From Stictocephala bisonia (taxonomy: Eukaryota > Arthropoda > Insecta > Hemiptera > Membracidae), in contig JAQJVL010000126.1 of assembly GCA_035578905.1 (NCBI GenBank), forward strand, positions 744,001 through 808,000: DNA of 64,000 nt, written 5' to 3'. The notes beneath the pieces were generated by a model, which saw nothing but the letters and a program-made list of their open reading frames with translations, ran no database searches and was not told where the DNA came from. Positions within the stretch are counted from its first letter, which is position 1. Each line of letters begins with the position of its first letter. A program made the translations under genes and the position numbers. Of this stretch, positions 3,396 through 53,655 are shown one piece after another.

Positions 3396-3739
3396 TACAT
3401 TTAAATTCTTTATTGTGTAGCATGACAATTTTTTGATTGTATTACACTCGTCATTAAATAAGTCTACCTTAAATTTAAAGATTGTACAAGAAACTTAATA
3501 AATGTACGGTAACAAAAATATAAACTTCTCCCAGAGCAATGCAAAACAAAATCTGTGTAGAATATTACGCTTTTATGCTATGTATCCGATAAATACTCAC
3601 CATCAGAGGAAAAAGCTTTAATTAAAAGGTGATTACGGAGTAATTTTTTGAATCTGATCGAGTTATGTTCTAATTTAATATTTTGTGGCAATTTGTTAAA
3701 TAATTTTGGCTGCATATTTTACGAACCCTAGGTCATAAA

Positions 3740-4330: not shown

Positions 4331-5362
4331 CGTCGCCGATTTATTTAACGTTTTATAGCTAGAAGGTTGTAAAATAGCCCAAATAACCATACAAAAAATG
4401 TCAGATGAAATGTTTAAAGGCCTTATTCTACCCAAGTTTGTTGGTACGAACAATTTACTGGTCCCTCATTGATACATTTCATTTACTATTTTATTAGTTG
4501 CACTTTTTATCTGAATACATTTTACTATATTTAACCCTTGTTATATTTGAATTATTGAAATTTATTGAAAGGCTGTAGATTTCGTTTTAAACAGCCATAA
4601 TGCTAAAAGAGCAATTCGGTTAATTTAATCAGGTTTATAGTTCCTTTTGTTTTTTAATCGATACTCAGCCTGGTTAAAACTGTAATTAAAAAATGATAAA
4701 GTATGACATAAATGTTGCCGCTTAGATGAGTTTCCAAGGTTTTTGGCTGAGAAGCTTAATTGTAAACATTACAAAATGCAGTACGGAATCCTTTTATTTT
4801 GTATTTAACATTTTAATTACTTCTCACCATAGGCAGACGGTATCGTTTGTTTTAATCACATGTTTGTTGAAATACTCTATCAGGTGATTTATATGAGCAG
4901 GCTGCACGTATAACTTCTCAGAGAGCCGGCTGTTAGCAACATCACACCTTTCTTTTCTGACTTTCTTGTCGGCAACTGACACATATTCTAAGTCGAATAA
5001 GATAATATATTATAATATGACATGATTATACAAAAGATAATTATTTTTCCAGGTTTATTAGATAAATTGATGAGGAAAAGTCCGTGAGTATTTGTTTGAT
5101 TCCAAAGGTAGTGCTCAACAATGCTACTTGATAAGAAGGATAAACCTATATGACTAAATAAAAATAGTTTGTCCTTATTCCAATTTTTAAGTTAAAACAA
5201 CGACATCATTGGTTAAAATAATTAGAACATTAGTAGTCCATAATTAGGTTGCAAATATAGAAAGAGAAATTTGCTTATACTACAGAAAACAAATCATAAA
5301 GTATTTTTATTGATAAAAGGTCATTTAAATGATAAATACTGAATATTATTCTATAATATCAG

Positions 5363-5400
5363 GGTTCAGTAACATTTCGTCCCGGTAACATTTCGTCCCG
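5363..5400 (+). repeat. Left terminal inverted repeat
   Basis: Two perfect tandem copies of GTAACATTTCGTCCCG occupy 5369-5384 and 5385-5400, preceded by GGTTCA. The right terminus mirrors this arrangement. Confidence 0.88.
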
Positions 5401-5535
5401 CTGCTAATTTCCTAGAAAAAATGAACATTTCGTCTTGCTCAGTTTTACAAATTATTAAGCCAACTAATAAAGTAACATCTCGTCCCGACGAAAGTTTGAC
5501 AAGGGTTGAGGAACGCAACTCAGGTAAACGAAGGT

Positions 5536-5585
5536 CTAACCTAACCTAACCTAACCTAACCTAACCTAACCTAACCTAACCTAAC
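5536..5585 (+). repeat. Interstitial telomere-type repeat, CTAAC x 10
   Basis: Ten perfect copies of CTAAC, i.e. (CCTAA)n on this strand and (TTAGG)n on the other, which is the canonical arthropod telomere repeat. It lies wholly inside the inverted-repeat transposon, so it is interstitial and not a chromosome end. Confidence 0.93.
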
Positions 5586-5810
5586 CAATTTTTTATTAAT
5601 TTTTTATTATATAGACTGCCAACTTAATTGAGGAATTGATAGTGTTTGCCGATTGAGAGGAGGGCGGAAGACAAGCACAAGTATAAAACGTATGAGGGTC
5701 CTACAAACAGTTTTTGTAGACCTGTCAAACATACAATAGCATATGTGCCGGGACGAGATGTTACTAGTAGACAGGTAGAGAGTTCACACCTAGCACCACG
5801 CCCGTGGAAT

Positions 5811-5848
5811 CGGGACGAGATGTTACCGGGACGAAATGTTACGACACC
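5811..5848 (-). repeat. Right terminal inverted repeat
   Basis: CGGGACGAGATGTTAC (5811-5826) and CGGGACGAAATGTTAC (5827-5842) are the reverse complements of the left copies, with one T-to-C change in the inner one, followed by GACACC. Confidence 0.88.
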
Positions 5849-6297
5849 AATATCAGAGGACCTTTTCTTTACTAGGAGTAAAAGTGTGTCCAAGAATTTT
5901 CAGAATTATCGTAATATAACTATAAATATATTTTGTATTGAAAATAACTTGTTAATACGTAAAATGCATGTGGCACATTAAAACTGGCCATGTAGGTAAC
6001 AACCGAAAGCTATAAATTAAATAGGCTCTAATTAAAATGTCAGGATATTTTACCTTCACAAATCCATAAAAGTTCCAGTTTCCCGTTTACGCACTTACCT
6101 GGAGCATTGGAGTGACGGGTGTTATCTCCTGTCCTTTCACACTTTTAGTCTTAAATTGTCTAGAGAGGTCAATTCCGTATAATAATGACTATAAAAGTCT
6201 GATAGTCTGGTAACAAATCAGAAGCCATGTGTTGGCTGGATAATTATTTTTGGCATTTGGATTTTTGGTGGCTTGCACAAATTTTTAAAGGAACAAA

Positions 6298-6475
6298 ATT
6301 AATGTTGTTGTTATTATTTCACCATATTATTAACGGTATCATTAATGTTGTTGTTATTATTTCACCATATTATTAACGGTATCATTAATGTTGTTGTTAT
6401 TATTTCACCATATTATTAACGGTATCATTAATGTTGTTGTTATTATTTCACCATATTATTAACGGTATCATTAAT
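6298..6475 (+). repeat. 43-bp tandem repeat, 4 perfect copies
   Basis: The unit starts ATTAATGTTGTTGTTATTAT and ends TATTATTAACGGTATC; four identical copies plus the first six bases of a fifth. Perfect identity suggests very recent expansion. Confidence 0.96.
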
Positions 6476-6963
6476 TTGTCCAATCCTCAATTCTTTACTT
6501 TTATAAATCCTCGTCAACTAAAACACAGATTTTCTCAAACGGCAGACCAATAGTTCTTGGTCGTGATATAGCAACTATTTGTCAAATGACTTGAAAAACG
6601 TCTTTATGAAAAGGCCGAAGTTGTAAAGTCCTCTCTAACTCTTAACCCCATCTAACACTTTGTGTTTGAGAGTTTTCACAATTTTGCTTGAGGTAAATAT
6701 GCTTTGGTTTGATCTAGTATGGTACCTCTCAATAGCCTTCAAACCCTCTCAGCAAAAAGACAGTAATATTTTGGCTAGTTGTGGTTGTGCAGTGATGTGT
6801 TACTTTAGAATGTATGCAATAATTAACTTGCTTCCGAATTCTGAACACTGGAGCGGCTCCTCAATGTGATATGCTGATACTTGTTCATGAATGCATGAAA
6901 GTATATAGATCCAAATATTACAACATTTTGAGATATAGGCTGCAATTTACATTATGTAATAAA

Positions 6964-14339: not shown

Positions 14340-17300
14340 TACAAACTGTTGCTCACGAGCGTAACATTAAAGGCTAACACTTATTCAAATATATATTGAC
14401 TTATGACTGAGGATGGTAACATGGTTTACAAACTGTTGCTCACGAGCGTAACATTAAAGGCTAACACTTATTCAAATATATATTGACATATGACTGAGGA
14501 TGGTAACATGGTTTACAAACTGTTGCTCACGAGCGTAACATTAAAGGCTAACACTTATTCAAATATATATTGACATATGACTGAGGATGGTAACATGGTT
14601 TACAAACTGTTGCTCACGAGCGTAACATTAAAGGCTAACACTTATTCAAAAATATATTGACATATGACTGAGGATGGTAACATGGTTTACAAACTGTTGC
14701 TCACGAGCGTAACATTAAAGGCTAACACTTATTCAAATATATATTGACATATGACTGAGGATGGTAACATGGTTTACAAACTGTTGCTCACGAGGGTAAC
14801 ATTAAAGGCTAACACTTATTCAAATATATATTGACATATGACTGAGGATGGTAACATGGTTTACAAACTGTTGCTCACGAGCGTAACATTAAAGGCTAAC
14901 ACTTATTCAAATATATATTGACTTATGACTGAGGATGGTAACATGGTTTACAAACTGTTGCTCACGAGCGTAACATTAAAGGCTAACACTTATTCAAATA
15001 TATATTGACATATGACTGAGGATGGTAACATGGTTTACAAACTGTTGCTCACGAGCGTAACATTAAAGGCTAACACTTATTCAAATATATATTGACTTAT
15101 GACTGAGGATGGTAACATGGTTTACAAACTGTTGCTCACGAGCGTAACATTAAAGGCTAACAATTATTCAAATATATATTTACTTATGACTGAGGATGGT
15201 AACATGGTTTACAAACTGTTGCTCACGAGCGTAAGATTAAAGGCTAACACTTATTCAAATATATATTGACTTATGACTGAGGATGGTAACATGGTTTACA
15301 AACTGTTGCTCACGAGCGTAAGATTAAAGGCTAACACTTATTCAAATATATATTGACTTATGACTGAGGATGGTAACATGGTTTACAAACTGTTGCTCAC
15401 GAGCGTGAGATTAAAGGCTAACACTTATTCAAATATATATTGACTTATGACTGAGGATGGTAACATGGTTTACAAACTGTTGCTCACGAGCGTAAGATTA
15501 AAGGCTAACACTTATTCAAATATATATTGACTTATGACTGAGGATGGTAACATGGTTTACAAACTATTGCTCACGAGCGTAAGATTAAAGGCTAACACTT
15601 ATTCAAATATATATTGACATATGACTGAGGATGGTAACATGGTTTACAAACTGTTGCTCACGAGCGTAACATTAAAGGCTAACATTTATTCAAATATATA
15701 TTGACTTATGACTGAGGATGGTAACATGGTTTATAAACTGTTGCTCACGAGCGTAAGATTAAAGGCTAACACTTATTCAAATATATATTGACTTATGACT
15801 GAGGATGGTAACATGGTTTACAAACTGTTGCTCACGAGCGTAAGATTAAAGGCTAACACTTATTCAAATATATATTGACTTATGACTGAGGATGGTAACA
15901 TGGTTTACAAACTGTTGCTCACGAGCGTAAGATTAAAGGCTAACACTTATTCAAATATATATTGACTTATGACTGAGGATGGTAACATGGTTTACAAACT
16001 GTTGCTCACGAGCGTAAGATTAAAGGCTAACACTTATTCAAATATATATTGACTTATGACTGAGGATGGTAACATGGTTTACAAACTGTTGCTCACGAGC
16101 GTAAGATTAAAGGCTAACACTTATTCAAATATATATTGACTTATGACTGAGGATGGTAACATGGTTTACAAACTGTTGCTCACGAGCGTAACATTAAAGG
16201 CTAACACTTATGACTGAGGATGGTAACATGGTTTACAAACTGTTGCTCACGAGCGTAAGATTAAAGGCTAACACTTATTCAAATATATATTGACTTATGA
16301 CTGAGGATGGTAACATGGTTTACAAACTGTTGCTCACGAGCGTAAGATTAAAGGCTAACACTTATGACTGAGGATGGTAACATGGTTTACAAACTGTTCC
16401 TCACGAGCGTAAGATTAAAGGCTAACACTTATTCAAATATATATTGACTTATGACTGAGGATGGTATCATGGTTTACAAACTGTTGCTCACGAGCGTAAC
16501 ATTAAAGGCTAACACTTATTCAAATATATATTGACATATGACTGAGGATGGTAACATGGTTTACAAACTGTTGCTCACGAGCGTAACATTAAAGGCTAAC
16601 ACTTATTCAAATATATATTGACATATGACTGAGGATGGTAACATGGTTTACAAACTGTTGCTCACGAGCGTAACATTAAAGGCTAACACTTATTCAAATA
16701 TATATTGACATATGACTGAGGATGGTAACATGGTTTACAAACTGTTGCTCACGAGCGTAACATTAAAGGCTAACACTTCTTCAAATATATATTGACTTAT
16801 GACTGAGGATGGTAACATGGTTTACAAACTGTTGCTCACGAGCGTAACAATTAAAGGCTAACACTTATTCAAATATATATTGACATATGACTGAGGATGG
16901 TAACATGGTTTACAAACTGTTGCTCACGAGCGTAACATTAAAGGCTAACACTTATTCAAATATATATTGACATATGACTGAGGATGGTAACATGGTTTAC
17001 AAACTGTTGCTCACGAGCGTAACATTAAAGGCCAACACTTATTCAAATATATATTGACATATGACTGAGGATGGTAACATGGTTTACAAACTGTTGCTCA
17101 CGAGCGTAACATTAAAGGCTAACACTTATTCAAATATATATTGACATATGACTGAGGATGGTAACATGGTTTACAAACTGTTGCTCACGAGCGTAACATT
17201 AAAGGCTAACACTTATTCAAATATATATTGACATATGACTGAGGATGGTAACATGGTTTACAAACTGTTGCTCACGAGCGTAACATTAAAGGCTAACACT

Positions 17301-18745
17301 TATTCAAATATATATTGACATATGACTGAGGATGGTAACATGGTTTACAAACTGTTGCTCACGAGCGTAACATTAAAGGCTAACACTTATTCAAATATAT
17401 ATTGACATATGACTGAGGATGGTAACATGGTTTACAAACTGTTGCTCACGAGCGTAACATTAAAGGCTAACACTTATTCAAATATATATTGACATATGAC
17501 TGAGGATGGTAACATGGTTTACAAACTGTTGCTCACGAGCGTAACATTAAAGGCTAACACTTATTCAAAAATATATTGACATATGACTGAGGATGGTAAC
17601 ATGGTTTACAAACTGTTGCTCACGAGCGTAACATTAAAGGCTAACACTTATTCAAATATATATTGACATATGACTGCGGATGGTAACATGGTTTACAAAC
17701 TGTTGCTCACGAGGGTAACATTAAAGGCTAACACTTATTCAAATATATATTGACATATGACTGAGGATGGTAACATGGTTTACAAACTGTTGCTCACGAG
17801 TGTAACATTAAAGGCTAACACTTATTCAAATATATATTGACATATGACTGAGGATGGTAACATGGTTTACAAACTGTTGCTCACGAGCGTAACATTAAAG
17901 GCTAACACTTATTCAAATATATATTGACATATGACTGAGGATGGTAACATGGTTTACAAACTGTTGCTCACGAGCGTAACATTAAAGGCTAACACTTATT
18001 CAAATATATATTGACATATGACTGAGGATGGTAACATGGTTTACAAACTGTTGCTCACGAGCGTAACATTAAAGGCTAACACTTATTCAAATATATATTG
18101 ACTTATGACTGAGGATGCTAACATGGTTTACAAACTGTTGCTCACGAGCGTAAGATTAAAGGCTAACACTTATTCAAATATATATTGACTTATGACTGAG
18201 GATGCTAACATGGTTTACAAACTGTTGCTCACGAGCGTAAGATTAAAGGCTAACACTCATTCAAATATATATTGACATATGACTGAGGATGGTAACATGG
18301 TTTACAAACTGTTGCTCACGAGCGTTATATTAAAGGCTAACACTTATTCAAATATATATTGACTTATGACTGAGGATGCTAACATGGTTTACAAACTGTT
18401 GCTCACGAGCGTAAGATTAAAGGCTAACACTTATTCAAATATATATTGACTTATGACTGAGGATGGTAACATGGTTTACAAACTGTTGCTCACGAGCGTA
18501 AGATTAAAGGCTAACACTTATTCAAATATATATATTGACATATGACTGAGGATGGTAACATGGTTTACAAACTGTTGCTCACGAGCGTAACATTAAAGGC
18601 TAACACTTATTCAAATATATATTGACATATGACTGAGGATGGTAACATGGTTTACAAACTGTTGCTCACGAGCGTAACATTAAAGGCTAACACTTATTCA
18701 AATATATATTGACATATGACTGAGGATGGTAACATGGTTTACAAA
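14340..18745 (+). repeat. 87-bp satellite array, about 50 copies
   Basis: The unit starts ACAAACTGTTGCTCACGAGC and ends GAGGATGGTAACATGGTTT. Copies are highly alike. Two linked variants recur: AACATT versus AGATTA after GCGT, and GACATATG versus GACTTATG. Two copies (around 16201 and 16361) are only 67 bp, and one near 18530 has an extra TA. All six frames of the unit contain stops, so it is non-coding. Confidence 0.97.
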
Positions 18746-27322: not shown

Positions 27323-27998
27323 GTTTAACTGGTCTAGTCTGTTTAACTGGTCTATTCTGTTTAACTGGTCTATTCTGTTTAACTGGTCTATTCTGTTTAA
27401 CTGGTCTATTCTGTTTAACTGGTCTATTCTGTTTAACTGGTTCTATTCTGTTTAACTGGTCTATTCTGTTAACTGGTCTATTCTGTTTAACTGGTCTATT
27501 CTGTTTAACTGGTCTATTCTGTTTTAACTGGTCTATTCTGTTTAACTGGTCTATTCTGTTTAACTGGTCTATTCTGTTTAACTGGTCTATTCTGTTTAAC
27601 TGGTCTATTCTGTTTAACTGGTCTATTCTGTTTAACTGGTCTGGTCTATTCTGTTTAACTGGTCTATTCTGTTTAACTGGTCTATTCTGTTTAACTGGTC
27701 TATTCTGTTTAACTGGTCTATTCTGTTTAACTGGTCTATTCTGTTTAACTGGTCTATTCTGTTTAACTGGTCTATTCTGTTTAACTGGTCTATTCTGTTT
27801 AACTGGTCTATTCTGTTTAACTGGTCTATTCTGTTTAACTGGTCTATTCTGTTTAACTGGTCTATTCTGTTTAACTGGTCTATTCTGTTTAACTGGTCTA
27901 TTCTGTTTAACTGGTCTATTCTGTTTAATTGGTTTATTCTGTTTAACTGGTCTATTCTGTTTAACTGGTCTATTCTGTTTAACTGGTCTATTCTGTTT
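27323..27998 (+). repeat. 18-bp minisatellite, about 37 copies
   Basis: The unit is GTTTAACTGGTCTATTCT, nearly perfect throughout. Exceptions are single-base indels (near 27440, 27467 and 27522), one 5-bp duplication near 27642, and a copy with two transitions near 27930. There are no spacers and no open frame. Confidence 0.97.
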
Positions 27999-33571: not shown

Positions 33572-35370
33572 GTCACGTTCAAGGAGGGAAGAGGGTGACT
33601 GAAGTGATTGTTGTTCAGCTGTACTCACGAGTCAGTCAACTTAATAAAATGTCACGTTCGAGGAAGGGAGGGGGTGACCGAAGTGATTGTTGTTGTTCAG
33701 CTGTACTCACAAGTCAGTCAACTTAACAATATGTCACGTTTGAGGAAGGGAGGGGGTGACTGAAGTGATTGTTGTTCAGTTGTGCTCATGAGTCAGTCAA
33801 CTTATTTCGTCATGTACGAGGAAGAGAGGGGGTGACTGAAGTGATTGTTGTTCAGCTGTACTCGCGAGTCAGTCAACTTAATACGTCTTGTACGAGGAAG
33901 AGAGGGGGTGACTGAAGTGATTGTTGTTCAGTTGTGCTCACGAGTCAGTCAACTTAATACGTCTTGTACGAGGAAGAGAGGGGGTGACTAAAGTGATTGT
34001 TGTTCAGCTGTACTCGCGAGTCAGTCAACTTAATACGTCTTTTACGAGGAAGAGAGGGGGTGACTGAAGTGATTGTTGTTCAGTTGTGCTCACGAGTCAG
34101 TCAACTTAATACGTCTTGTACGAGGAAGAGAGGGGGTGACTGAAGTGATTGTTGTTCAGCTGTACTCGCGAGTCAGTCAACTTAATACGTCTTGTACGAG
34201 GAAGAGAGGGGGTGACTGAAGTGATTGTTGTTCAGTTGTGCTCACGAGTCAGTCAACTTAATACGTCTTGTACGAGGAAGAGAGGGGGTGACTGAAGTGA
34301 TTGTTGTTCAGCTGTACTCGCGAGTCAGTCAACTTAATACGTCTTGTACGAGGAAGAGAGGGGGTGACTGAAGTGATTGTTGTTCAGCTGTGCTCACGAG
34401 TCAGTCAACTTAATACGTCTTGTACGAGGAAGAGAGGGGGTGACTGAAGTGATTGTTGTTCAGCTGTGCTCACGAGTCAGTCAACTTAATACGTCTTGTA
34501 CGAGGAAGGGAGGGGGTGGCTGAAGTGATTGTTGTTCAGCTGTGCTCGCGAGTCAGTCAACTTAATACGTCTTGTACGAGGAAGAGAGGGGGTGACTGAA
34601 GTGATTGTTGTTCAGTTGTGCTCACGAGTCAGTCAACTTAATACGTCTTGTACGAGGAAGAGAGGGGGTGACTGAAGTGATTGTTGTTCAGTTGTGCTCA
34701 CGAGTCAGTCAACTTAATACGTCTTGTACGAGGAAGGGAGGGGGTGGCTGACGTGATTGTTGTTCAGTTGTGCTCACGAGTCAGTCAACTTAATACGTCT
34801 TGTACGAGGAAGGAAGGGGGTGGCTGACGTGATTGTTGTTCAGTTGTGCTCACGAGTCAGTCAACTTAATACGTCTTGTACGAGGAAGGAAGGGGGTGGC
34901 TGACGTGATTGTTGTTCAGCTGTACTCGCGAGTCAGTCAACTTAATACGTCTTGTACGAGGAAGAGAGGGGGTGGCTGACGTGATTGTTGTTCAGCTGTA
35001 CTCGCGAGTCAGTCAACTTAATACGTCTTGTACGAGGAAGGAAGGGGGTGGCTGACGTGATTGTTGTTCAGTTGTGCTCACGAGTCAGTCAACTTAATAC
35101 GTCTTGTACAAGGAAGGGAAGGGGGTGGCTGACGTGATTGTTGTTCAGCTGTACTCGCGAGTCAGTCAACTTAATACGTCTTGTACAAGGAAGGGAAGGG
35201 GTGGCTGACGTGATTGTTGTTCAGTTGTGCTCACGAGTCAGTCAACTTAATACGTCTTGTACGAGGAAGAGAGGGGGTGGCTGACGTGATTGTTGTTCAG
35301 CTGTACTCGCGAGTCAGTCAACTTAATACGTCTTGTACGAGGAAGGAAGGGGGTGGCTGACGTGATTGTT
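33572..35370 (+). repeat. 76-bp tandem array, about 24 copies, with dimer structure
   Basis: The unit starts GTCTTGTACGAGGAAGAGAG and ends GAGTCAGTCAACTTAATAC. Early copies carry GTCACGTT, middle copies GTCTTGTACGAGG with GACTGAAGTGATTG, and late copies GGCTGACGTGATTG. A second variable site, GTACTCGCGAG versus GTGCTCACGAG, alternates from copy to copy between about 33850 and 34330, giving a 152-bp higher-order unit. Confidence 0.96.
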
Positions 35371-36725
35371 CATTGAGAGTTACTAAGACATCGATCGTAG
35401 ATATATGGGTGAATATGAGAGCGACTAAGCGTGGTGAATGTAGATGGCCGATTGTTATCATTGTTACTAAGGTTTACTGCTCCTTAAAAGAGCTATATAT
35501 TAATATTCCAATAACCAGGGCATCTAAGATACCTACAGCTTTTCCTGGAATCTGAACCAAGTAATATTGGTCTGATTTTCAACTACTTGATCAGCCTGAT
35601 ACTCAGATCTCCTTCCTCATAACATTTGGGCTCTGACTACCACCCAACATGGACATCTCAGGCTTCTCTAGTATTGTCCATACAAATGACAACCTTTAAT
35701 CAGACGCATTTTGCTAGCGAGAGGACCGAGCGTTGGACCTATCGCCTACAATTTCCACAACACTTTGTCCCAAGTAGCTGGGTTACAACACTGCGCCTCT
35801 AGCGCTGCCTAGTGATAAGAAATGTCGGTTTTTTGCGGCCAAAATGTATTTATTCTCCCCATTAGGACCAATATTATTTTTTTTTCGAATCAATCAAAGC
35901 TTACTCAACGGTAAGTTAGTTTATAAGTTTGTTAGTTAGCCGAATTTAACGGTTTATATTTTTACAAATGATTGAATAAATGCTTATTGTTGAATGTTTT
36001 TGGTTTTTACAATTTTCTGGTGTTTTCATTCAAACTAATATTTTAAATTAGAATAATTATAAGAACATGTATCACAAATATACAAATACGCTAACAAATC
36101 ATCATTATCAATTATAATACCTTCAAAATGACTTAATAAACCTAATAATTGTGGAACATACATAAACGATCTGCTTCATTCCCAGATATTTATTAGTCTT
36201 ATGAAGAATATTTTAAAGCCAATTCAGCCCCCCTCTTAACAATACAGCCTTGTTAAATATTTAAAATATTTTTAGTATTTAGTCTGCCGTTCGTCAAGAA
36301 AAAATCTGAAAAAATGTGCCTTTTGATCTCTTGACCATGGCAATCCATCCACAGCCTCACCTGGAAACTAAAACTGTTTCATATTTCATGGTTTTGAACC
36401 AAGACACCCGCCTGTGCATATTGACTGTCATGCTAAGTTTTATAAAACTAGAAATAAACCTACACAAAAGATACAAAATCCAGTAATTGAATATTAGAGT
36501 AAGAACAATGTTTTTAATAATCTTTATTGGAGCACTTTTAATGATAATGATTATTATAAAATAAGGCATCAATTACTTTGAGGAAAGTAAAAAAGAGGAG
36601 TGAACATTTTGTCAAGTAATTGATATATCGTTTTCTATTGGCCAAAATAATAAAACAATACAGTACAATATTGTACTAAATATATAATTACTCATTCAGT
36701 AGTGTAGTAAAACATGTACACGTTT

Positions 36726-37479
36726 GTTAGTCATAAATGAGTATGGTAAAAGGTAATCATAATGTGGGTAGGCGTACCACTGTTAGTCATAAATGAGTAT
36801 GATAAAAGGTAATCATAATGTGGTTAGGCGTACCACTGTTAGTCATAAATGAGTATGGTAAAAGGTAATCATAATGTGGGTAGGCGTACCACTGTTAGTC
36901 ATAAATGAGTATGGTAAAAGGTAATCATAATGTGGGTAGGCGTACCACTGTTAGTCATAAATGAGTATGATAAAAGGTAATCATAATGTGGGTAGGCGTG
37001 CACCAGTTAGTCATAAATGGGTATGGTAAAAGGTAATCATAATGTGGGTAGGCGTACCACTGTTAGTCATAAATGAGTATGATAAAAGGTAATCATAATG
37101 TGGGTAGGCGTACCACTGTTAGTCATAAATGAGTATGGTAAAAGGTAATCATAATGTGGGTAGGCGTACCACTGTTAGTCATAAATGAGTATGGTAAAAG
37201 GAAATCATAATGTGGGTAGGCGTACCCCTGTTAGTCATAAATGAGTATGGTAAAAGGTAATCATAATGTGGGTAGGCATACCACTGTTAGTCATAAATGA
37301 GTATGGTAAAAGGTAATCATAATGTGGGTAGGCGTACCACTGTAAGTCATAAATGAGTATGGTAAAAGGTAATCATAATGTGGGTAGGCGTGCACCAGTT
37401 AGTCATAAATGGGTATGGTAAAAGGTAATCATAATGTGGGTAGGCGTACCACTGTTAGTCATAAATGAGTATGGTAAAA
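36726..37479 (+). repeat. 56-bp tandem array, about 13 copies
   Basis: The unit starts GTTAGTCATAAATGAGTATG and ends GGTAGGCGTACCACT. The rare variant GCGTGCACCAG followed by AATGGGTATGG appears at 36996 and again at 37388, exactly seven units (392 bp) apart, indicating block duplication. Confidence 0.96.
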
Positions 37480-42764: not shown

Positions 42765-42847
42765 AAGTATCGGACATATACAATATCATTCCATTTACCT
42801 GACTACGAGCACCCCCAACTCGTCTGCCTAATAGGACCCAGAAGTCC
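42765..42847 (+). repeat. Left copy of a direct repeat flanking the 105-bp array
   Basis: It starts AAGTATCGGACATATACAAT and ends CCTAATAGGACCCAGAAGTC. It is about 85-90% identical by eye to 44643-44728 on the other side of the array, so the array sits within, or grew from, an ~85-bp duplicated sequence. Confidence 0.85.
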
Positions 42848-44580
42848 CACTACACCACCTACGAACACGACCCAGAAGTCCCACTACGCCACCTACGAAC
42901 ACGACCCAGAAGTCCCACAACACCCTTATGAACACGACCCAGAAATCCCACTACACCACCTACGACCACGAACCAGAAGTCCCACTTCCCCCCTACGAAC
43001 ACAACTTTGGCTATAAGTCCCACAACACCCTTATGAACACGACCCAGAAGTCCCACTACACCACCTACGACCACGAACCAGAAGTCCCACTACAACACCT
43101 ACGACCACGAACCAGAAGTCCCACTTCCCCCCTAAGAACACAACTTTGGCTATAAGTCCCACAACACCCTTATGAACACGACCCAGAAGTCCCACTACAC
43201 CACCTACGACCACGAACCAGAAGTCCCACTTCCCCCCTACGAACACAACTTTGGCTATAAGTCCCACAACACCCTTATGAACACGACCCAGAAGTCCCAC
43301 TACACCACCTACGACCATAAACCAGAAGTCCCACTTCCCCCCTACGAACACAACTTTGGGTAAGTCCCACAACACCCTTATGAACACGACCCAGAAGTCC
43401 CACTACACCACCTACGACCATAAACCAGAAGTCCCACTTCCCCCCTACGAACACAACTTTGGGTAAGTCCCACAACACCCTCATGAACACGACCCAGAAG
43501 TCCCACTACACCACCTACGACCACGAACCAGAAGTCCCACTTCACCACCTACGACCACGAACAAGAAGTCCCACTTCCCCCCTACGAACACAACTTTGGC
43601 TATAAGTCCCACAACACCCTTATGAACACGACCCAGAAGTCCCATTTCCCCCCTACGAACACAACTTTGGCTATAAATCCCACAACACCTTTATGAACAC
43701 GACCCAGAAGTCCCACTACACCACCTACAACCACGAACCAGAAGTCCCACTTCCCCCCTACGAACACAACTTTGGCTATAAGTCCCACAATACCCTTATG
43801 AACACGACCCAGAAGTCCCACTACACCACCTACGACCACGAACCAGAAGTCCCACTTCCCCCCTACGAACACAACTTTGACTATAAGTCCCACAACACCC
43901 TTATGAACACGACCCAGAAGTCCCACTAGACCATCTACGACCACGAACGAGAAGTCCCACTTCCCCCTACGAACACAACTTTGGCTATAAGTCCCACAAC
44001 ACCCTTATGAACACGACCCAGAAGTCCCACTACACCATCTACGACCACGAACGAGAAGTCCCACTTCCCCCCTACGAACACAACTTTGGCTATAAGTCCC
44101 ACAACACCCTTATGAACACGACCCAGAAGTCCCACTACACCACCTACGACCATAAACCAGAAGTCCCACTACACCACCTACGACCACGAACCAGAAGTCC
44201 CACTTCCCCCCTACGAACACAACTTTGGCTATAAGTCCCACAACACCCTTATGAACACGACCCAGAAGTCCCATTTCCCCCCTACGAACACAACCTTGGC
44301 TATAAGTCCACTACGAATACAACTTTGGGTAAGTCCCACAACACCCTCATGAACACGACCCAGAAGTCCCACTACACCACCTACGACCACGAACCAGAAG
44401 TCCCACTACACCACCTACGACCACGAACCAGAAGTCCCACTTCCCCCCTACGAACACAACTTTGGCTATAAGTCCCACAACACCCTTATGAACACGACCC
44501 AGAAGTCCCATTTCCCCCCTACGAACACAACTTTGGCTATAAGTCCCACAACACCCTTATAAACACGACTCATAAGTCTC
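42836..44580 (+). repeat. 105-bp compound tandem array, about 16 copies
   Basis: Each 105-bp unit is built from three related ~35-bp pieces that share AGAAGTCCCAC: one with CACCACCTACGACCACGAAC, one with CCCCCCTACGAACACAACTT, one with AACACCCTTATGAACACGAC. The plus strand is strongly C/A-rich and G-poor. Because 105 is divisible by three, frames stay open over several units on both strands (35-residue repeats containing SHYTTYDHEPEVPLPPYEH on plus). In-array stops, frameshifts (for example TTTGGGTAAG) and lack of a start or splice context argue that it is non-coding. Confidence 0.95.
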
Positions 44581-45670: not shown

Positions 45671-46383
45671 AATCTTTGTAGAGACTCGATAAATCTAAGT
45701 TTCCTTGAGAAGTTAATTAGCCATTTTAAATTTACTGTAAAAATGTTTTGTTGATTTGGTTTTTTTTAGTTGAGTTGATACTCCTTCATTAGTATTCTTT
45801 TTCACCCTAGTGTTGGGCTTGTTCAGAATGAATTTTACTACGAGTAGGCCTATATGGACAAATCTCGTTTATCGGCGTAGATCCTCGATAAAATATATAT
45901 ATTTCAATTTTTTTCAGCACCAGAGTGTTTTTTTAACTAAACGGTTCCCACAAGGTGTGTTTTCAGTTATGTATACGTTTTTGAGACTTTCACCCCTCAT
46001 CATCCTATGGTACAAACATTCTTTACTTCCATACTACAAAGGTATTTTTAACGCTTCTAGTGTTTAAGAAACAACACAATGTCCGGTGTGTATAGAAACT
46101 TTCCTCTTAGGGGTTACTTACTCATTATACTAATTTCAATAAAACAAGATATCGAAGAGTAAGTCAAACTATATTATTACCAAAAACCCTTAAAACGACT
46201 TCATACTGTACTTCAAACTAAGATCGTCTTTCAGAAAGCCATGTCTTTTTACAAACAATTACAGTTGCAAACAATTATGAAATACAAGACACTCAATATA
46301 AATAGTACAAACAAAAATTATAAAAAATTTATCAATAAGTAATTCACAAAAAAATTACCGAAAAAAATAATTAATAACAACAA

Positions 46384-47250
46384 AGTCATCCAACAAAGTA
46401 TGTATATCCACAAGGTACAAGGGACGTGATAATAATAACTAAGTCATCCAACAAAGTATGTATATCCACAAGGTTCAAGGGACGTGATGATAATAACTAA
46501 GTCATCCAACAAAGTATGTATATCCACAAGGTACAAAGGACGTGATGATAATAACTAAGTCATCCAACAAAGTATGTATATCCACAAGGTTCAAGGGACG
46601 TGATGATAATAACTAAGTCATCCAACAAAGTATGTATATCCACAAGGTACAAGGGACGTGATGATAATAACTAAGTCATCCAACAAAGTATGTATATCTA
46701 CAAGGTACAAGAGACGTGATGATAATAACTAAGTCATCCAACAAAGTATGTATATCCACAAGGTACAAGGGACGTGATGATAATAACTAAGTCATCCAAC
46801 AAAGTATGTATATCCACAAGGTTCAAGGGACGTGATGATAATAACTAAGTCATCCAACAAAGTATGTATATCCACAAGGTACAAGGGACGTGATGATAAT
46901 AACTAAGTCATCCAACAAAGTATGTATATCCACAAGGTACAAAGGACGTGATGATGATAATAACTAAGTCATCCAACAAAGTATGTATATCCACAAGGTA
47001 CAAGGGACGTGATGATAATAACTAAGTCATCCAACAAAGTATGTATATCCACAAGGTTCAAGGGACGTGATGATAACAACTAAGTCATCCAACAAAGTAT
47101 GTATATCCACAAGGTACAAAGGACGTGATGATGATAATAACTAAGTCATCCAACAAAGTATGTATATCCACAAGGTACAAAGGACGTGATGATGATAATA
47201 ACTAAGTCATCCAACAGAGTATGTATATCCACAAGGTACAAGGGACGTGA
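46384..47250 (+). repeat. 58-bp tandem array, about 15 copies
   Basis: The unit starts AGTCATCCAACAAAGTATGT and ends GGGACGTGATGATAATAACTA. Variation is concentrated in GTACAA versus GTTCAA and in the number of GAT triplets before AATAACTA (one to three). Confidence 0.96.
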
Positions 47251-52447: not shown

Positions 52448-53655
52448 GCGACGAAATGGGATTTCCTATTTAGGTATATGGAGAGTGGATAGATAAGGTG
52501 GTTGTTGGTCGGCCTAAACGAAATATGATTTAAAAGACTTACATGAGGGTGGTTGTACAAGGTGGTTTTGTTAAGCTATTTACAACGAATTGAGTTTTTT
52601 GTTGCCCTACATTTACTTTTCAGCGCGGTTGGATTTATGACGAAATGGGAGATCAGATTATTTACACGTAGAATGGTTGGACAAGGTGCAATTGGTCAGC
52701 CTATTTACGACAAAATGGGAGTTTAGATTATTTACATGGAGGGTGGTTGGATTTATGACGAAATGGGAGATTAGATTATTTACACGTAGAATGGTTGGAC
52801 AAGGTGCAATTGGTCAGCCTATTTACGACAAAATGGGAGTTTAGATTATTTACGGAAGGTGGTTGGATTTATGACGAAATGGGAGATTAGATTATTTACA
52901 CGTAGAATGGTTGGACCAGGTGCTTATTGGTCAGACTATTTTTGACGAAATGGGATTTGGATTATTTTCATGGAGGGTGGTTGGGTAAGATGCTTATTGG
53001 TCAGCATATTTACGACGAAATGTGGTTTTATATTATTTACATGGAGTGTGGTTTGATAAGGAGCTTATTAGTCAGCCTATTATCGAGGAAATGGGATTTT
53101 AGATTATTTACATGGAGGGTGGTTGGATAAGGAGCTTATTGATCGGCCTATTTACGACGAAATGGGGTTTTATATTATTTATATGGAGTGTGGTTTGATA
53201 AGGAGCTTATTAGTCAGCCTATTTACGACGAAATGGGAGTTTAGATTATTTACATGAAGAGCGGTTGATATGATGTTTATTGGTCAGCCTCTTCTGACAA
53301 CATGGGATTTTAGATTATTTACATGGAGGGCGGTTGGATAAGACGCTTATTGGTTAGCCTCTTTACGACGAAACGGGAGTTTCGATTATTTACATGAAGA
53401 GCGGTTGATATGATGTTTATTGGTCAGCCTCTTCTGACAACATGGGATTTTAGATTATTTACATGGAGGGCGGTTGGATAAGACGCTTATTGGTTAGCCT
53501 CTTTACGACGAAACGGGAGTTTCGATTATTTACATGGAGGGTGGTTGTTTAAGGAGATTATTGGTCAGCCTATTTACGACGAAATGGGAGTTTAGATTAT
53601 TTACATAGAGGGTGGTTGGTAGGAAATATTCTTTGAGTGCCTATTGGGCAGCCTA
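52448..53655 (+). repeat. ~71-bp diverged tandem array, about 17 copies, inside the putative first intron
   Basis: The core unit is built from TTGGTCAGCCTATTTACGAC, GAAATGGGAGTTTAGATTAT and TTACATGGAGGGTGGTTGG. Copies differ much more than in the other arrays, except for an exact two-unit (140-bp) block at 53251-53390 that is repeated from 53391. Confidence 0.92.

What the first reader, a model, noticed from the sequence alone, without database searches (positions are those of the whole stretch)
5363..5848. Fold-back transposon carrying a telomeric TTAGG run
A complete non-autonomous element (38-bp inverted repeats made of doubled 16-mers, 8-bp target duplication AATATCAG) contains exactly ten perfect CCTAA units. 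If other genomic copies also carry the run, this family disperses telomere-type DNA to interior sites, and telomerase-like or break-repair capture may have created it. Doubled termini plus two further internal 16-mer copies also suggest multiple transposase-binding sites.
Basis: partly seen in the sequence, partly recalled or inferred. Interest (0 to 1): 0.75.

Follow-up and report, generated by a model that had tools for sequence, protein, structure and literature searches.

The report
Jumping genes patched with telomere repeats
In this genome a family of jumping DNA elements has repeatedly lost its middle and had the break filled with a short repeat of the kind found at chromosome ends, and the patched copies then spread to new sites.

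Summary
The window element (5363-5848, 8-bp duplication AATATCAG) is an internal-deletion derivative of a Mutator-like element (MULE); a 4.8-kb copy has frame-broken FLYWCH and MULE domains. The left-end signature occurs 58 times in the 1.68-Gb assembly: 34 places carry CCTAA units at an internal-deletion seam, 24 show none there in the stretch read (10 of these read for about 1 kb only). Five different seams carry it (A 20 copies, B 10, C 1, D 1, E 2), about 13 others do not; a random point lies this near a run 0.5% of the time. A 10-bp marker sets A and B apart from C and E; I infer three or four independent gains. 43 of 44 two-ended copies have 8-bp duplications, so patched copies transposed. 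Other repeat families carry such runs too; in one (3342 candidates) 20 of 20 copies read had it. Best reading: telomere-type repeats served as filler in repair of breaks inside transposons and were multiplied by transposition. Synthesis by telomerase (a domain is present) or copying of existing repeats is unresolved.

The parts
5355..5362 (.). left copy of target-site duplication AATATCAG
5363..5848 (+). non-autonomous MULE derivative, 'form B', 486 bp
5363..5400 (+). left terminal repeat: GGTTCA plus two 16-mers GTAACATTTCGTCCCG
5422..5437 (+). internal 16-mer copy, 75% identical
5472..5487 (+). internal 16-mer copy, 94% identical
5536..5586 (+). telomere-type run (CTAAC)10.2 at the deletion seam: left breakpoint after GAAGGT (5535), right breakpoint before AATTTTTTATT (5587)
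5587..5608 (+). right edge of the seam: AATTTTTTATT twice (once in copies L013-L017)
5748..5764 (-). internal inverted 16-mer copy
5811..5848 (-). right terminal repeat, two 16-mers (inverted) plus outer 6 nt
5849..5856 (.). right copy of target-site duplication AATATCAG

Best explanation
A MULE-type DNA transposon suffered double-strand breaks or aborted gap repair inside its copies. In several independent events the ends were rejoined with telomere-type (CCTAA)n DNA as filler, leaving internally deleted elements with the run at the seam. Shown: the run lies at seams with several different breakpoint pairs, flush or within about ten extra bases, where longer copies are continuous. Shown: copies of the patched forms sit at different sites with their own 8-bp duplications, and run lengths differ between them. 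Inferred: the filler came either from telomerase extending a broken 3' end or from copying existing telomeric or interstitial repeats. Form B, to which the window copy belongs, probably arose from form A by a second deletion flush with the run.
For: Breakpoints on L060 coordinates: A 199|4378, B 200|4592, C 960|4564, D 959|4728, E 1024|4615, all with the run. Longer run-less copies read through these points. Copies: A 20, B 10, C 1, D 1, E 2 (tally) of 58 left ends. A run of two or more units lies within 15 bp of 0.48% of points; 5 of 18 seams then has a chance of 2e-8, and 4 of 17 (B counted with A) of 1e-6. The 10-bp deletion marker is in 27 of 27 A and B copies tested and in none of C, E (3 copies) or 12 long copies. 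E shares with run-less L050 a base that no other of 38 copies has and matches it at 98-99%, a little better than other long copies. Retained bases at the run-side break continue the telomeric register in A (4 nt) and C (3 nt). E holds GTTAG, AGTGC and then AACCTAACC between its flanks, as if both ends had been extended. One telomerase RNA-binding domain exon is present. Elsewhere a run is flanked flush by a 9-bp direct duplication (L109) and another by a 15-bp one, 5 bp off on one side (L106). Other repeat families hold runs, family 4 at two different left breakpoints.
Against: At D no base and at E a 4-base insertion lie at the run-side break, so telomerase priming is supported at 2 of 4 seams only. 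The runs of C, D, L064 and the A copies L022, L065, L074 hold variant units (CCCAA, AACAT, CCAAA) although the elements are young, which fits copying of degenerate repeats better than fresh telomerase synthesis. C and D are single copies, E two. All five runs have the same orientation, which random filling does not predict (four independent cases are too few to test). Direct repeats of 7 bp or more beside the sampled runs are no commoner than in mismatched pairs (3 of 24 against 63 of 552). That CCTAA is this organism's telomere repeat was not shown: 20 of 20 contig ends lack arrays. Three A copies (L020, L025, L031) keep only a degenerate run or one unit.
Confidence: 0.72

Rival explanations
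1. The run was gained once in a long ancestor and then acted as a deletion or recombination hotspot: later deletions ended flush with the run, or other copies received the run by template switching from a run-bearing copy.
For: B shares its left breakpoint (within 1 bp) and the 10-bp marker with A, so at least one such secondary flush deletion is likely. Existing runs are plentiful as templates. E is only slightly closer to L050 than to other long copies.
Against: A and E cannot derive from each other by deletion, since A keeps less than E on the left and more on the right. A common ancestor would need about six flush deletions, and no such copy was seen among the 58 left ends, 10 of which were read for about 1 kb only. 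E shares its private base with run-less L050. Variant units differ in part between A, C, D and E.
Confidence: 0.17
2. Ordinary microsatellite growth by polymerase slippage at chance CCTAA motifs.
For: Run lengths vary between copies of one form, from one to eleven counted units in A, so length change does act after the gain.
Against: The long-copy sequence at the breakpoints of A, C, D and E holds no CCTAA seed; the same pentamer appears at several different seams; the pattern read backwards is absent from the genome (0 against 2956).
Confidence: 0.05
3. The element took up telomeric DNA by inserting into chromosome ends and leaving with it.
For: None found beyond the motif.
Against: The run lies at internal-deletion seams, not outside the terminal repeats, and the duplicated 8-bp targets of the 43 copies are not telomeric units.
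Confidence: 0.03

Closest known systems
Short interstitial telomeric sequences inserted at double-strand breaks in mammals and other vertebrates (PMC2246262, PMC7215372, PMC8537989; passages seen)
   Same: Telomeric repeats appear at break sites with deletions, duplications or extra bases; [quoted passage not shown] telomerase present.
   Different: Here the breaks are inside DNA transposons, recur at several seams of one family, and transposition multiplied the product. [quoted passage not shown]
Gap filling (filler capture) in TIR transposons of metazoans, Pack-TIRs (PMC8277862, passages)
   Same: Break inside a TIR element, template switching to a filler, microhomology at the seams, later mobilisation as multicopy element.
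   Different: Fillers there are biased to nearby sequence (56.9% within 15 kb); 'telomer' does not occur in its main text.
Phantom MULEs and the Tm1 Mutator/Foldback family of root-knot nematodes (PMC6446971, PMC3169594; passages)
   Same: FLYWCH with MULE domains, duplications of 8-10 bp, composite inverted repeats built of short tandem units of varying number (Tm1).
   Different: Tm1 units are 13-15 bp with mostly 9-bp duplications; 'telomer' does not occur in the Tm1 paper's main text.
Microsatellites carried by transposable elements in penaeid shrimp (PMC7878876, passages)
   Same: Transposable elements act as carriers for the spread of short tandem repeats; (AACCT)n is named there as telomeric.
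   Different: The passages seen do not place (AACCT)n at internal-deletion seams or invoke break repair.

Membership tests
Mutator-like elements (MULE) | MULE transposase domain in a related longer copy | tested here: met
   PF10551 E 9.1e-10, 39.3 bits against cut-off 27.6, in L060
Mutator-like elements (MULE) | target duplications of 8-11 bp (PMC6446971) | tested here: met
   8 bp with at most one mismatch in 43 of 44 copies with both ends; L052 fails
Phantom subgroup | FLYWCH zinc finger with MULE domain (PMC3169594; PMC6446971 lists none, FLYWCH or SWIM) | tested here: met
   PF04500 E 1.5e-8, 35.1 bits against cut-off 23.6, in L060, in another frame than the MULE domain
Phantom subgroup | transposase falls in the Phantom clade | not tested
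   no transposase tree was built; the L060 frame is broken and was not mended
Fold-back (FB) elements | long composite inverted repeats of variable length (definition partly recalled) | tested here: not met
   arms of about 32 nt with one to three 16-mers: composite and variable, but short
Break-repair interstitial telomeric sequence | empty ancestral sequence known, run inserted at the seam | tested here: met
   longer run-less copies against forms A, C, D, E
[quoted passage not shown]
   A 4, C 3, D 0, E not flush
Break-repair interstitial telomeric sequence | motif is the organism's telomere repeat and telomerase is present | tested here: inconclusive
   one telomerase domain present; 20 of 20 contig ends, 250 bases each, lack arrays; the search for 100-base arrays did not complete
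TERC-ITS | flank reverse-transcribed from telomerase RNA | not tested
   the telomerase RNA of this organism is not known here

The most novel reading that the evidence does not exclude
In this genome telomeric repeat addition is a routine way of filling breaks in the germ line, and DNA transposons are the main vehicle that turns such rare repair scars into thousands of interstitial telomere-type runs, so that most short runs are transposed copies of a few repair events.
Probability: 0.4. Interest if true: 0.75.

Novelty: new variant of a known kind. Interest (0 to 1): 0.6.

Why it matters
Insertion of telomeric repeats at breaks was worked out in vertebrates from single loci compared between species. 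A multicopy transposon offers many near-identical breaks with known longer relatives in one genome, so the source of the filler (telomerase or copying), its frequency (here 5 of about 18 seams) and its rules become countable. It also gives a route by which telomere-type DNA is spread to chromosome interiors.

Tried and rejected
Rejected: the run as an ancestral part of the element (longer copies read through its place); slippage alone; chance; insertion into telomeres. A tree of the shared end segments (38 copies) resolves little because copies differ by only a few percent; only the 10-bp marker and single substitutions carry weight. Contig ends (20 ends of 10 contigs) held no telomeric array. 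The window has no open frame of 130 aa or more under table 11. The organism could not be named. The searches for long telomeric arrays, for the right-end pattern and with a long-copy stretch did not complete.

How counts were made: the list of about 18 seams was made by eye. I merged 1011|3514 with 1015|3530 and left out the nested insertion at 215|929, the insertion at 3520|3679 (L069), duplications near the left end (L017, L050, L051), the rearranged L150, the interrupted or truncated right parts of L073, L074, L151 and L154, and the divergent L156-L158 (about 80% alike). L157 shows a 10-base two-unit match inside MULE-like sequence, not at a seam. Thirteen short loci (L026, L029, L036, L038-L047) were replaced by longer fetches of the same places (L048-L060). 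Ten run-less left ends were read for about 0.9-1.1 kb only: L070, L071, L076 (its right part in L049), L150, L152, L153, L155-L158.

Full report
Observation. Direct reading confirms the element at 5363-5848, its 8-bp duplication AATATCAG, two 16-mers at each end, three further 16-mer copies inside, and a pure (CTAAC)10.2 run at 5536-5586.

Copies. A DNA search scored 40 of 202 candidates. The 32-base doubled 16-mer has 132 hits with up to three mismatches, of which the first were listed. A left-end signature has 58 hits with up to two mismatches, all listed, and each of the 58 places was fetched, 10 of them for about 1 kb only. 34 of 58 carry CCTAA units at a deletion seam: form A 20, B 10, C 1, D 1, E 2 (sequences; tally). 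Among these L020 has a degenerate run, and L025 and L031 keep only AACCTAAC. The other 24 show no run at a seam in the stretch read; L060 and L070 hold runs in nested foreign elements. Of 63 loci scanned (some are single ends, and L049 and L076 are the two ends of one copy), 44 show both ends, and 43 of these have an 8-bp duplication with at most one mismatch (37 exact). L015/L016 share one insertion site and L057/L059 another. Terminal 16-mers number one to three per end.

What the family is. L060, a 4.8-kb copy, holds a FLYWCH finger (PF04500, E 1.5e-8) and a MULE transposase domain (PF10551, E 9.1e-10) in separate frames. With 8-bp duplications this makes the family a MULE of Phantom-like make-up; passages of PMC3169594 characterise Phantom transposases by FLYWCH plus MULE, and PMC6446971 gives 8-10 bp duplications for Phantom. 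No transposase tree was made.

Where the run sits. Against L060 as it stands, the run-bearing seams are A 199|4378, B 200|4592, C 960|4564, D 959|4728 and E 1024|4615. Longer run-less copies read straight through, for instance GAAGGTCCTCTGTG on the left and AGAGGATAACATTATC on the right. About 13 further seams without a run were found: 1011|3514 (with 1015|3530), 956|2942, 196|2962, 211|3561, 1047|2164, 2446|3037, 3771|4723, 996|2947, 4764|4811, 959|3107, 4041|4820 and 1057|3665, 215|3106. In 212,762 bases of the window and of loci L048-L062, the element itself left out, 26 runs of two or more units put 0.48% of points within 15 bp of a run; five of 18 seams then has a chance of 2e-8, four of 17 of 1e-6. 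These loci are not a random sample of the genome.

Independence. 27 of 27 form A and B copies tested share a 10-bp deletion (CTTAATTTTTATTAGCTAAGG to CTTAATTGAGG); C, E and 12 of 12 long copies tested lack it; in D the region is gone. L048, truncated on the left so that its seam is lost, also has it. So B is probably A after a second deletion. The E copies share with run-less L050 a base found in no other of 38 copies and match it at 98-99%, slightly better than other long copies. A and E cannot be derived from each other by deletion. No long copy with a run at such a place was seen.

Mechanism clues. The retained right flank continues the telomeric register for 4 bases in A and 3 in C, for 0 in D, and E has extra bases. 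The E seam reads GCACTCAGGTTAGAGTGCAACCTAACC: a short G-strand piece, a fold-back of the flank, then the C-strand run, as if both broken ends had been extended. On the other side, variant units in C, D, L064, L022, L065 and L074 fit copying of degenerate repeats. One telomerase RNA-binding exon without stops is present (C54, E 2.5e-13) and matches solved telomerases (best E 1.2e-11); the rest of that gene was not sought. I therefore hold break repair with telomere-type filler as likely, and leave its source open.

The rest of the genome. (CTAAC)4 in one phase occurs at 2956 places, the reversed pattern at none. Of the 100 places listed I read 33 (isolated ones, in order along contig C1; not random). 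15 of 33 matched other fetched sequence: 12 of them at 92% or more, in family 3 (six, one seam, runs of 60-160 bp), family 4 (three, with two different left breakpoints), family 5 (two) and family 2 (L103); L083, L089 and L107 only weakly or over a short stretch. Family 2 has 3342 first-look candidates (40 scored); 20 of 20 copies read around the spot carry two or more units at one place. The query held the run, so that sample leans towards it. Family 4 has 679 candidates (40 scored). Run-less long relatives of families 2 to 5 were not read, so for them the seam reading is an inference. Two single loci have direct duplications beside the run: 9 bp, flush on both sides (L109), and 15 bp, flush on the right and 5 bp off on the left (L106). 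Direct matches of 9 or more occur in 2 of 24 loci against 5 of 552 mismatched pairs; at 7 or more there is no excess, 3 of 24 against 63 of 552 (nine of the 33 loci, family duplicates and degenerate arrays, were left out). One run lies inside a 29-bp inverted repeat (L107).

Novelty. Ten paper searches listed no paper whose title or abstract start describes telomeric repeats at internal-deletion seams of DNA transposons; the listings were capped, only open-licence papers are held, and of most papers only the listing was seen. Passages were seen of PMC7215372, PMC2246262, PMC8537989, PMC8277862, PMC7878876, PMC3169594, PMC6446971 and PMC8977481. The parts are known (telomeric insertion at breaks in vertebrates, filler capture in TIR elements, microsatellite carriage by transposons); their recurrent union in one family, followed by amplification, I have not found described. 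PMC8537989 suggests that transposons did not disseminate TERC-ITSs in vertebrates; here transposition does disseminate telomere-type runs.

Noticed in passing
C126:741707-742292 (L061 2345-2930), about 1.7 kb before the window starts: A second element family (GGTGGCACTCGAGGTGCGACATGG ends, internal 36-bp minisatellite) with a CCTAA run; 3342 candidates genome-wide, 20 of 20 read carry it. Another version with different interior and run is nested in L060 with a 9-bp duplication.
   Followed up: partly
L077, L082, L084, L092, L097, L100; nested in L070: Family 3: 98-100% identical flanks and one seam with runs of 60-160 bp, so probably a very young spreading element.
   Followed up: partly
L085, L087, L093, L080: Family 4 has runs at two different left breakpoints; L080 shares GGTGCTTATTGAAGTAAGCAA before its run but has other outer flanks.
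   Followed up: partly
L106, L109: CCTAA runs with direct duplications on both sides, 15 bp (5 bp off the run on the left) and 9 bp (flush), as expected from filling of a staggered break.
   Followed up: partly
L107: Run of nine units inside a 29-bp perfect inverted repeat.
   Followed up: no
L060 coordinates 956-960 and 1011-1024: Several deletion breakpoints, with and without runs, fall in or within about 10 bp of CCCAGCTGGG and CAGCTG palindromes (with sequences).
   Followed up: no
L055 (C1573): A Tc1/mariner-type transposase frame (weak DDE_3 match, 24.3 bits, below the cut-off of 28.6) nested in a MULE copy.
   Followed up: no
window 14340-18745, 27323-27998, 33593-35370, 36725-37479, 42835-44528, 46374-47250, 52627-53619: Many long minisatellite arrays (periods 18 to 261 bp) in one 64-kb window.
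   Followed up: no
window 6298-6479: 43-bp unit repeated 4.3 times, 99% matches, 450 bp after the element.
   Followed up: no
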